Shown here: piece by piece, positions 2,697-19,144 of the stretch
Layout: each line of letters begins with the position of its first letter
Numbering within the stretch: position 1 is the stretch's first letter
Source of the DNA: a virus
Reading direction: 5' to 3' (one strand)
IMG/VR virus record: IMGVR_UViG_3300014325_000602
Location: 1-61,948 of that record
Length of the DNA: 61,948 nt
Translations under genes and position numbers: made by a program
Notes under the pieces: model-generated
The model's input: only the letters and a program-made list of their open reading frames with translations
Databases searched by the model: none
Told to the model about the DNA's origin: nothing

Positions 2697-2847
2697 GGAA
2701 CCTCCAAAACGTGAGGCGACAGATCTGGCCTAAAAATGACAAATGATCACTATTGGCATATTCGATTTTTCTTGAACTGCTAGAAGAACGACCTGGCGGT
2801 CGATGACGAACTCAGGCCAGTTGGGGGTCCGGCCTGCTGTGCCGCGC
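2697..2847. promoter_or_regulatory. A+T-rich intergenic stretch, probable minus-strand promoter
   Basis: These 151 bases lie between two minus-strand genes. The part from about 2730 to 2780 is strikingly A+T-rich against the G+C-rich surroundings, which is what a promoter for the exported and membrane proteins downstream (2696 to 1302) would look like. I cannot fix -35 and -10 boxes with confidence. Confidence 0.3.
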
Positions 2848-12699: not shown

Positions 12700-13524
12700 A
12701 TGATTTCAAAATCCCTCAGCACTTCCGTGTGCTTCGCTCGCCTCTTTGAGGTGTGCCCTGACCTGGCCGAGTTTGCGCAGTCGCTCTATCCGCTCCTCGT
12801 CTCACACGCGGACGATTTTGGCCGAGAGCAGGGGGACGTCCTCACCGTCAAGTACCGGATTCATCCTCGATCGCCACGTTCCGAACAGGAATTTGAGCGC
12901 GCGATTCACGCCCTGCATGACGTCGGGCTCATCGTGTGGTACGAGGCGAAGGGGCGGCGCTGCTACCAAGTCGTCAAGTTCGACGACCATCAAACTGGGC
13001 TCCATAAACGCACCAAAAGCGCATTCCCGGCGGTTCCCGGAAATTCCGGGAATTTCCCGGAAAGTCCCGGCCAACTAAAGAGAACAGAAGAGAAGAGAAC
13101 TGAAGGGAAGGGAACAGAACAAGAGACTAGCTCGACGCCGCTTCGCGCCGCCGAGCCGGCCGTCATCAGCTTCCCGACGGTGGGCAAGGTTCCCACCTGG
13201 GCACTGACCCGCCCGCAGATCGCCGAGTGGGGCGAGCAGTTCCCAGGAATCGACGTCCCCGGCGAAGCCCGCAAGGCCCTCGCCTGGGTGAAGGCGAATC
13301 CGACGAAGCGTAAGACCGCCAGCGGCATGCCGCGGTTCCTCGTCAGCTGGCTGGGCCGGTCGGTGAACTCAGGGCGCGCCGCTCATCTACCGCGCCAGCA
13401 GCCGGCCTACGAGCACATGCACGTCTGGCGCGAGGAGTGCGAGCGCCTTCACGGGAGTCGCTGTGGGAATCCGCGATTTCACGCCGCAAAGATGGCCGAA
13501 GAGGCTGAAACGGCGGTGGGCTGA
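12700..13524 (+). CDS. Phage replication initiator / replisome organiser-like protein
   Basis: This is a 274-residue protein; the ATG at 12700 follows AGAGGA. The N-terminal domain (residues 10-105) has the phage DNA-replication pattern FEVCPDLAEFAQSLYPLLVS, HADDFGREQGDVL, AIHALHDVGLIVWYEA and KFDDHQTGLHKRT, a winged-helix domain found in replisome organisers. Residues 108-145 are a low-complexity linker whose DNA is a set of 10-bp iterons plus a purine tract (13021-13130). The C-terminus (PTKRKTASGMPRFLVSWLGR) matches the end of many helicase-loader proteins. As in lambda O, origin and initiator probably coincide. Confidence 0.75.
   Translation: MISKSLSTSVCFARLFEVCPDLAEFAQSLYPLLVSHADDFGREQGDVLTVKYRIHPRSPRSEQEFERAIHALHDVGLIVWYEAKGRRCYQVVKFDDHQTGLHKRTKSAFPAVPGNSGNFPESPGQLKRTEEKRTEGKGTEQETSSTPLRAAEPAVISFPTVGKVPTWALTRPQIAEWGEQFPGIDVPGEARKALAWVKANPTKRKTASGMPRFLVSWLGRSVNSGRAAHLPRQQPAYEHMHVWREECERLHGSRCGNPRFHAAKMAEEAETAVG
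13021..13130 (+). repeat. Candidate replication origin: five 10-bp iterons and purine tract
   Basis: Five direct 10-bp units (13021-13070) each contain TTCCCGG or a one-base variant, at 13024, 13034, 13044 (TTCCGGG), 13054 and 13064. The core TTCC[CG]GGAA is nearly self-complementary. Directly after them, 13071-13130 is an almost pure purine strand built of AGAACAGAAG-like units. Iterons followed by an easily melted tract, inside the initiator gene, is the arrangement of lambda ori. Confidence 0.65.
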
Positions 13525-18611: not shown

Positions 18612-18628
18612 GGAACCAGGAGATGAGG

Positions 18629-18670
18629 ATGACCGACCGACCGACCGACCGACCGACCGACCGACCGACA
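18629..18670 (+). repeat. Tetranucleotide microsatellite (GACC), nine full copies
   Basis: Nine uninterrupted GACC units run from 18631 to 18666, followed by GAC. The tract lies directly after two in-frame ATGs (18623 and 18629) and before a third ATG (18683) with its own ribosome-binding site. A change by one unit would shift the frame between the upstream ATGs and the gene body. Confidence 0.9.
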
Positions 18671-18682
18671 AGGGAGATCCCG

Positions 18683-19144
18683 ATGGTGAAAGCCCGCGTG
18701 GTGATCATCGACGCCGAAGGCAGCGACGAGGCGCTGCGCGCGATCATCGCGGCGTTCCAAACCGCCGTCGCGCCGACGTCGGCGCCGGTCTTGGCCGCGC
18801 CACCTGCGCCACTCGTGCTCGCGCCAGCGCCGCCCGCGGCCCCGCGGGCCAAACACGCGAAGGCCGCGCCGCGTGGGGGCGTCAGACGCACGCCGGCGTC
18901 GACGTCGAAGGCCGCGCCGGCCGCCGGCGGCTCGGTGAAGGACGCAGTCGACGATCTGCGCGCCTTCTTCAACAGGCTGAAAGCGCCGGTGCGCGCGAAC
19001 GACGTCAAGGCGGCGCTGTCGCTCAACCATTCGACATTCACGCGCGCCCTCAAGCAGTTGACCGACGGCAAGCAGGTCGTCCGTCGCGGGTGGAAGCTCG
19101 GGAGCCCAGAGGTCATGGCCGGGCTCGATCAGGAGGGCGATTGA
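18683..19144 (+). CDS. Winged-helix-like protein with Ala/Pro-rich linker
   Basis: This is a 153-residue protein from the ATG at 18683, which has AGGGAG six bases upstream. The in-frame ATGs at 18623 and 18629 would add a T-D-R-P repeat encoded by the GACC microsatellite. Residues 1-25 are an alpha/beta start (KARVVIIDAEGSDEALRAII), residues 30-90 a disordered Ala/Pro linker, and residues 90-150 a winged-helix-like domain (VDDLRAFFNRLKAPVRANDV, STFTRALKQLTDGKQVVRRG). The repeat may allow on/off or length switching of the longer form. The function is unknown. Confidence 0.6.
   Translation: MVKARVVIIDAEGSDEALRAIIAAFQTAVAPTSAPVLAAPPAPLVLAPAPPAAPRAKHAKAAPRGGVRRTPASTSKAAPAAGGSVKDAVDDLRAFFNRLKAPVRANDVKAALSLNHSTFTRALKQLTDGKQVVRRGWKLGSPEVMAGLDQEGD

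What the first reader, a model, noticed from the sequence alone, without database searches (positions are those of the whole stretch)
13021..13130. Lambda-like origin inside the replication gene
Five 10-bp tandem units with a nearly palindromic TTCC[CG]GGAA core are followed directly by a 60-base purine tract. They lie in the low-complexity linker of the initiator-like protein. Lambda places its iterons and melting tract inside O in the same way, but this exact 10-bp phased sequence is not one I recognise.
Basis: seen in the sequence. Interest (0 to 1): 0.7.

Follow-up and report, generated by a model that had tools for sequence, protein, structure and literature searches.

The report
Phage origin inside its initiator gene
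Inside the gene for a phage's DNA-replication starter protein lies a DNA element that very probably marks where copying begins: repeated 10-base sites for the protein followed by a five-base 'GAA ladder', a pairing also found next to quite different repeats in unrelated phage starter genes.

Summary
At 13024-13070 there are five 10-bp units, three with an exact TTCC[CG]GGAA core; these are the only three exact cores in the window. A purine-rich tract follows (13075-13122). Both periodicities are the strongest in the 62-kb window and are lost on synonymous recoding. The encoded residues form a predicted disordered linker between a winged-helix domain and a helical C-terminal domain. Homologues found by protein sequence alone keep the 10-bp array and the ladder while the linker peptide and C-terminal domain change. 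In two phages whose initiator gene lacks the element, a detached copy (iterons plus ladder) lies kilobases away, so it is a DNA module and not a protein feature. A second initiator family with different iterons (GTCCGC/GCGGAC) carries the ladder in all 44 non-redundant linkers. Best reading: a replication origin embedded in its initiator gene, working like lambda O/ori or pSK41 RepA_N, with the ladder as a weak-duplex, strand-asymmetric unwinding element. It is not a sequence member of either family. The ladder appears undescribed in the papers I could search. Origin activity itself is untested.

The parts
12700..13524 (+). initiator protein gene (274 aa; P0001)
   Evidence: PHROG 2149/1408/16167/5810 'replication initiation protein', best E 1.9e-9; no Pfam match
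12700..13026 (+). N-terminal winged-helix (DNA-binding) domain, residues about 1-109
   Evidence: AlphaFold2 pLDDT mostly above 90 and helix/strand order; winged-helix matches, Z 6.8-8.4
13024..13070 (+). iteron array: five 10-bp units (TTCCCGGCGG, TTCCCGGAAA, TTCCGGGAAT, TTCCCGGAAA, GTCCCGG), three exact TTCC[CG]GGAA cores
   Evidence: conserved in homologues
13075..13122 (+). GAANN ladder: GAA every 5 nt (GAACA/GAAGA/GAACT/GAAGG units), second-weakest duplex region of the window; proposed unwinding / single-strand element
   Evidence: conserved in homologues and in a second initiator family
13027..13158 (+). linker of the protein (about residues 110-153), largely predicted disordered, encoded by the iterons and ladder
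   Evidence: pLDDT below 50 for residues 120-123, 127-129 and 131-150
13165..13371 (+). C-terminal helical domain (residues about 156-224), the interchangeable part; probable helicase/primosome contact
   Evidence: AlphaFold2; similar C-termini in other phage replication proteins; DnaD-type C-terminus (DnaB_2) in 8 of 45 relatives

Best explanation
This is the phage's replication origin, embedded in the linker-coding part of its initiator gene. Inferred mechanism: (1) the winged-helix N-domain binds the palindromic TTCCSGGAA sites, which recur about once per helical turn, so bound protomers line up on one face of the DNA; (2) the nucleoprotein complex strains the adjacent weak, strand-asymmetric GAANN ladder and opens it; (3) one strand of the ladder (GAA on the coding strand, TTC on the other) is held by initiator, helicase loader or a host factor reading one unit per 5 nt; (4) the C-terminal domain, or a partner it recruits, loads the replicative helicase. 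Shown here: the DNA-level conservation, the architecture, its detachability from the gene, and the recurrence of the ladder beside unrelated iterons. Inferred: binding, opening, strand choice and helicase loading.
For: DNA-level signal: highest period-10 and period-5 windows in 62 kb; synonymous recoding never restored period 10 (0/40,000) and restored period 5 once (1/40,000). Arg codon AGA is 0.7% of Arg codons in eight window genes, yet both Arg codons of the ladder are AGA. Homologues chosen by protein sequence only (77 non-redundant): 50 have at least 2 cores in the linker, 46 have a ladder of at least 5 GAA, 39 have both. Core density is 10.6/kb in the linker against 0.30 and 0.37/kb in the rest of the gene, and the commonest spacing by far is exactly 10 (73 cases). 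Word-free analysis of 50 ladders: three near-invariant columns (mean entropy 0.15-0.29 bit; 'GAA' in 39/50) and two free columns (1.1-1.2 bit). In 2.9 million viral contigs TTCCSGGAAWTTCCSGGAA occurs in 38 stretches: 29 inside or just upstream of these initiators, 6 in detached arrays with a ladder on the same contig. Detached copies, 9.3 kb from the gene in one phage, where the initiator gene has none. Second family, queried by N-domain only: all 44 non-redundant linkers have GTCCGC/GCGGAC repeats then the ladder; ladder Arg codons are AGA in 129/129 against 111/884 elsewhere. Linker predicted disordered between two folded domains. Precedents: lambda O binds iterons, and A+T-rich-tract ssDNA, inside the O gene (PMC7466680); pSK41 Rep boxes lie inside rep and encode its linker (PMC5703833); plasmid Rep proteins bind one DUE strand (PMC4081077).
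Against: No replication-start, binding or melting data. GC skew shows no switch at 13 kb. The weakest duplex in the window is at about 2.73 kb, not here. The window has no upstream operator copy, and some family members lack the element with no detached copy seen, several of them on short contigs. That the same ladder occurs beside unrelated iterons leaves open which protein, if any, reads it. The synonymous null for core number alone is weak for single genes (p<0.01 in only 6 of 77); the case rests on spacing, density, detachment and codon choice.
Confidence: 0.85

Rival explanations
1. The repeats are only a by-product of a low-complexity, disordered protein linker (protein-level selection or replication slippage), with no DNA function.
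For: The linker is predicted disordered. Pentamer arrays do arise by slippage in phage genes such as DNA methyltransferases (slippage is inferred).
Against: 10-nt and 5-nt periods are not multiples of 3, so successive copies are read in different frames. Synonymous recoding destroys both signals. Rare Arg codon AGA is fixed in the ladder. Ladder units vary at two positions but keep GAA, unlike a slippage array. A detached copy with no initiator reading frame exists. The mirror pentamer (ACAAG)6 gives no initiator-family match.
Confidence: 0.04
2. The palindromes are an operator for autoregulation of the initiator gene or neighbouring transcription, not an origin; the ladder is an incidental or RNA-level element.
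For: 16 of 77 relatives carry a copy of the same site 53-68 nt upstream of the start codon, a promoter-like position, so the protein probably also represses itself.
Against: The intragenic array is coupled to the ladder and to a weak duplex, which the upstream copies are not. Diverse iterons recur upstream of the same ladder in many replication-gene families. A wholly intragenic operator, absent upstream in this window, would be unusual.
Confidence: 0.08
3. It is an origin, but the ladder is simply a weak, purine-rich unwinding tract with no unit-by-unit reading; its period is of no mechanistic importance.
For: The tract is among the weakest 0.05% of 60-bp windows. The period can also be 6 in a minority of relatives, and 6-7 is seen by eye in L002 and in Streptomyces phages. 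Lambda's tract has no 5-nt period.
Against: GAA is retained at every fifth base with two free bases between. The same word is fixed in two initiator families, which composition alone would not require.
Confidence: 0.35

Closest known systems
Lambda O protein and ori-lambda (lambdoid origins)
   Same: Initiator gene carries its own iterons in the linker-coding DNA with a strand-opening tract on the 3' side; O also binds single-stranded DNA of its tract (PMC7466680).
   Different: No Pfam match for this protein and no match to the O-like PHROGs 678 or 345. Iterons are 10-bp palindromes, not 18-bp lambda iterons; lambda's tract shows no 5-nt period.
RepA_N plasmid initiators (pSK41)
   Same: N-terminal winged helix binding boxes inside rep; the ori DNA encodes the linker; exchangeable, host-related C-terminal domain (PMC5703833).
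   Different: No Pfam RepA_N match. Rep structures 4pql, 4pt7 and 5kbj are in the fold list (Z 6.9-7.4) but do not stand above generic winged helices. No GAANN ladder is described there in the passages read.
DnaA-trio element of bacterial oriC
   Same: A short word repeated at fixed spacing next to double-strand initiator boxes, read as single strand.
   Different: 3-nt period and DnaA boxes there; 5-nt GAANN and phage-specific iterons here.
DnaD recognition element (pairs of TnnT; PMC10201434)
   Same: Strand-specific single-strand motif in an unwinding region that recruits a helicase loader; several relatives have DnaD-type C-termini.
   Different: The commonest ladder unit, GAACT, makes no TnnT on either strand when repeated.
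13-mer repeats of RK2 oriV read by TrfA (PMC4081077)
   Same: Repeats in the unwinding element, bound as one single strand by a winged-helix Rep protein.
   Different: 13-nt A+T-rich repeats there, 5-nt purine-rich units inside the initiator gene here.

Membership tests
Lambda O-type initiator/origin | origin (iterons plus unwinding tract) inside the initiator gene's linker-coding DNA | tested here: met
   layout only:
Lambda O-type initiator/origin | protein homologous to O (Pfam Phage_rep_O or O-like PHROGs) | tested here: not met
   P0001 has no Pfam match and no match to phrog_678 or phrog_345
Lambda O-type initiator/origin | 18-bp iterons and A+T-rich tract | tested here: not met
   10-bp units; ladder 43% GC, period 5; lambda tract lacks period 5
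RepA_N plasmid initiator | RepA_N domain (PF06970) in the N-terminus | tested here: not met
   no RepA_N match for P0001 or among 45 relatives
RepA_N plasmid initiator | N-domain fold of RepA_N proteins | tested here: inconclusive
   4pql/4pt7/5kbj listed at Z 6.9-7.4, tied with Fur-type winged helices
RepA_N plasmid initiator | boxes inside rep encoding a linker; exchangeable C-terminal domain | tested here: met
DnaA-trio origin | 3-nt repeats next to DnaA boxes | tested here: not met
   period is 5; the adjacent boxes are TTCCSGGAA
DnaD recognition element | paired TnnT motifs on one strand | tested here: inconclusive
   GAACA and GAAGA units give TnnT on the complementary strand, GAACT and GAAGG do not (unit counts)
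PHROG 2149/1408/16167 replication initiation proteins | profile match over the N-terminal domain | tested here: met
   E 1.9e-9 to 1.1e-6
Active replication origin (any type) | replication starts here / autonomous replication | not testable with these tools
   needs marker-frequency mapping or a plasmid assay

The most novel reading that the evidence does not exclude
The GAANN ladder is a widespread, previously undescribed single-strand origin code: a 5-nt-step element, analogous to but distinct from the DnaA-trio, paired with initiator-specific iterons across unrelated phage initiator families and read by a shared factor (initiator oligomer, helicase loader or a host protein).
Probability: 0.4. 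Interest if true: 0.88.

Novelty: new variant of a known kind. Interest (0 to 1): 0.72.

Why it matters
It gives a sequence signature (iterons followed by GAANN units) that can locate replication origins in many uncultured phages from DNA alone, and predicts the binding site of each initiator. That the same ladder sits beside different iterons and different C-terminal domains suggests a common step of strand opening or helicase entry. That step can be tested directly, for instance with prophages of the second family that occur in Escherichia coli. Detached copies show the module can move between coding and non-coding DNA.

Tried and rejected
GC skew as evidence for the start site: flat, uninformative. 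A scan for (AAGTT)6 as another ladder: found mostly near-identical non-coding repeats and no initiator; in hindsight a pure AAGTT array soon meets a TAA stop in any frame, so it was a poor test. Mirror control (ACAAG)6: 16 stretches, the named matches are mostly DNA methyltransferases and no initiator family is among them; by eye one, L126, also follows possible repeats. Counting in which reading frame each core falls is partly trivial because 10 is not a multiple of 3; I used the frame of the first core per array instead (frames 0/1/2: 23/15/17). GTCCGC/GCGGAC density in the second family is not clearly higher in the linker than in the N-domain, because a second cluster lies near the start of that gene, so I rely on the ladder and codon choice there. 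The genome search with phrog_2509 over one class gave a single hit. Fold search gave only generic winged helices. Profile search of solved structures gave at best a weak DnaD match, E 0.04, in the C-terminal half. DnaD-type TnnT reading as the general ladder code: rejected because the commonest unit, GAACT, does not make it. Literature searches for this ladder found nothing, but subscription reviews are not held.

Full report
What is there. The window is an IMG/VR virus record of 61,948 bp. It carries an integrase, SbcCD-like genes, a ParB-like gene, terminase, portal, major head protein and tape-measure gene, so it reads as a temperate tailed phage. The gene at 12700-13524 encodes a 274-aa protein that matches four PHROG 'replication initiation protein' families through its N-terminal half and no Pfam family. 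At 13024-13070 lie five 10-bp units, the middle three with the exact core TTCC[CG]GGAA; no other exact core exists in the window. The tract that follows is 82% purine over 13071-13130 and is organised as GAA every 5 nt: GAACA GAAGA GAAGA GAACT GAAGG GAAGG GAACA GAACA in its core.

More than chance, and not the protein's doing. In the 62-kb window the best 48-nt windows for period 10 and for period 5 are both here. Over two null models the gene was recoded synonymously 40,000 times; period 10 was never reached and period 5 was reached once. AGA is under 1% of 402 Arg codons in eight window genes, yet both arginines of the ladder use it. Because 10 and 5 are not multiples of 3, successive copies are read in different frames, so the repeating unit is a DNA unit. 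Only 0.05% of 60-bp windows are less stable than 13070-13129.

Relatives. A DNA-only scan of 2.9 million viral contigs for TTCCSGGAAWTTCCSGGAA gave 38 stretches. By my reading, 29 lie inside the linker of, or just upstream of the start codon of, an initiator of this family; 6 are detached arrays or fragments with a ladder on the same contig; 3 (L031, L034, L045) are unexplained. A protein-only search gave 77 non-redundant homologues, from an Acidobacteria MAG and Paenibacillus to a WOR-1 MAG. Of these, 50 have at least two cores in the linker, 46 a ladder of five or more GAA, 39 both; the spacing between successive cores is 10 in 73 cases; density is 10.6 per kb in the linker against 0.30 (N-domain) and 0.37 (C-terminal part). 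The reading frame of the first core differs between relatives (23/15/17). Where a period-5 ladder is found without assuming any word, the three best-conserved columns spell GAA in 39 of 50, with two free columns. The C-terminal domains are of different types, including DnaD-type in 8 of 45, while the DNA element stays. Sixteen relatives also have a copy 53-68 nt upstream of the start, probably an autoregulatory site.

The element can leave the gene. The phage of L149 (G390) has an initiator without cores or ladder; on the same contig, 9.3 kb away, six exact cores in two groups of three are followed by GAACTGAAGGGAACTGAAGGGAAAG, with no initiator reading frame. G401 likewise has a core-free initiator and detached arrays. 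This is the strongest single argument that the element acts as DNA and can be separate from the gene.

The ladder is wider than this family. A DNA scan for six GAASA units gave 69 stretches. Many lie in ORFs of several different replication-initiation PHROGs; of ten checked singly, seven matched replication or primosome families. In 54 distinct loci the 110 nt upstream hold far more repeated 7-mers than the 110 nt downstream (mean 19.5 against 3.2; background 2.1; Wilcoxon p = 1e-6), and the repeats differ from phage to phage. The mirror pentamer control gave 16 stretches whose named matches are mostly methyltransferase families, with no initiator family. A second family was then collected by its N-domain alone: in all 44 non-redundant linkers GTCCGC/GCGGAC repeats are followed by the GAAGA ladder, identical over 21 nt in 41; all 129 ladder arginines are AGA against 111 of 884 elsewhere (p = 2e-96). 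Caution: these 44 are related sequences, so the p-value overstates independence. Related E. coli prophage copies are annotated 'DnaT-like ssDNA-binding domain-containing protein'.

Structure. The AlphaFold2 model has a confident winged-helix domain (to about residue 110), a low-confidence stretch (mainly residues 120-150) and a helical C-terminal domain. The iterons and ladder encode residues 109-141, so the origin DNA is spelled where the protein tolerates almost any sequence. Fold searches return winged helices in general and do not single out one initiator family.

Mechanism. Shown: the architecture, DNA-level conservation, detachability and recurrence. Inferred from precedent: the winged-helix domain binds the iterons, the ladder opens, one strand is held, and the C-terminal domain brings in the helicase. 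Lambda O binds iterons inside its gene and single-stranded DNA of its tract (PMC7466680); pSK41 Rep binds boxes inside rep whose DNA encodes the linker, with a host-specific C-terminal domain (PMC5703833); plasmid Rep proteins bind one strand of repeated unwinding elements (PMC4081077); DnaD reads TnnT pairs on one strand (PMC10201434). The ladder's use by phages with different iterons argues for a shared reader or a shared physical role; which one is open.

Novelty. Origins inside initiator genes are known. The 10-bp TTCCSGGAA iteron family and above all the GAANN ladder, shared by different initiator families, were not found in the literature searched; most subscription papers, including older phage-replication reviews, are not held, so this is not proof of novelty.

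Noticed in passing
window 18631-18669: Perfect (GACC)n tetranucleotide array, 9.75 copies, starting 8 nt after the A of the ATG of ORF 18623-19144; a possible phase-variable switch.
   Followed up: no
L103, L107, L118-L125, L127, L130, L131: Pentamer arrays (ACAAG)n, some contigs also with (GAACA)n, in or near DNA methyltransferase genes of other phages; candidates for slippage phase variation, separate from the origin ladders.
   Followed up: partly
L156, L164, L168, L171, L178, L210 and others, 53-68 nt upstream of the initiator start: Second TTCCSGGAA pair at 10-bp spacing upstream of the initiator gene in 16 of 77 relatives; likely autoregulatory operator. Absent in the window.
   Followed up: partly
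L270, L295, L314, L334 positions about 55-111 of the gene: The second initiator family has a further GTCCGC/GCGGAC cluster near the start of the gene, paralleling the upstream operator of the first family.
   Followed up: no
L031, L034, L045: Paired TTCCSGGAA sites in phage contigs with no detectable member of this initiator family.
   Followed up: no
L198, L200, L201, L183: Homologues of the N-domain with long, different C-terminal regions sharing a motif, and with no iterons or ladder in the gene and no core pair elsewhere on the contig.
   Followed up: no
window 2717-2790: Lowest-GC, weakest duplex of the window, just beyond the reverse-strand ORF 2217-2696; not examined.
   Followed up: no
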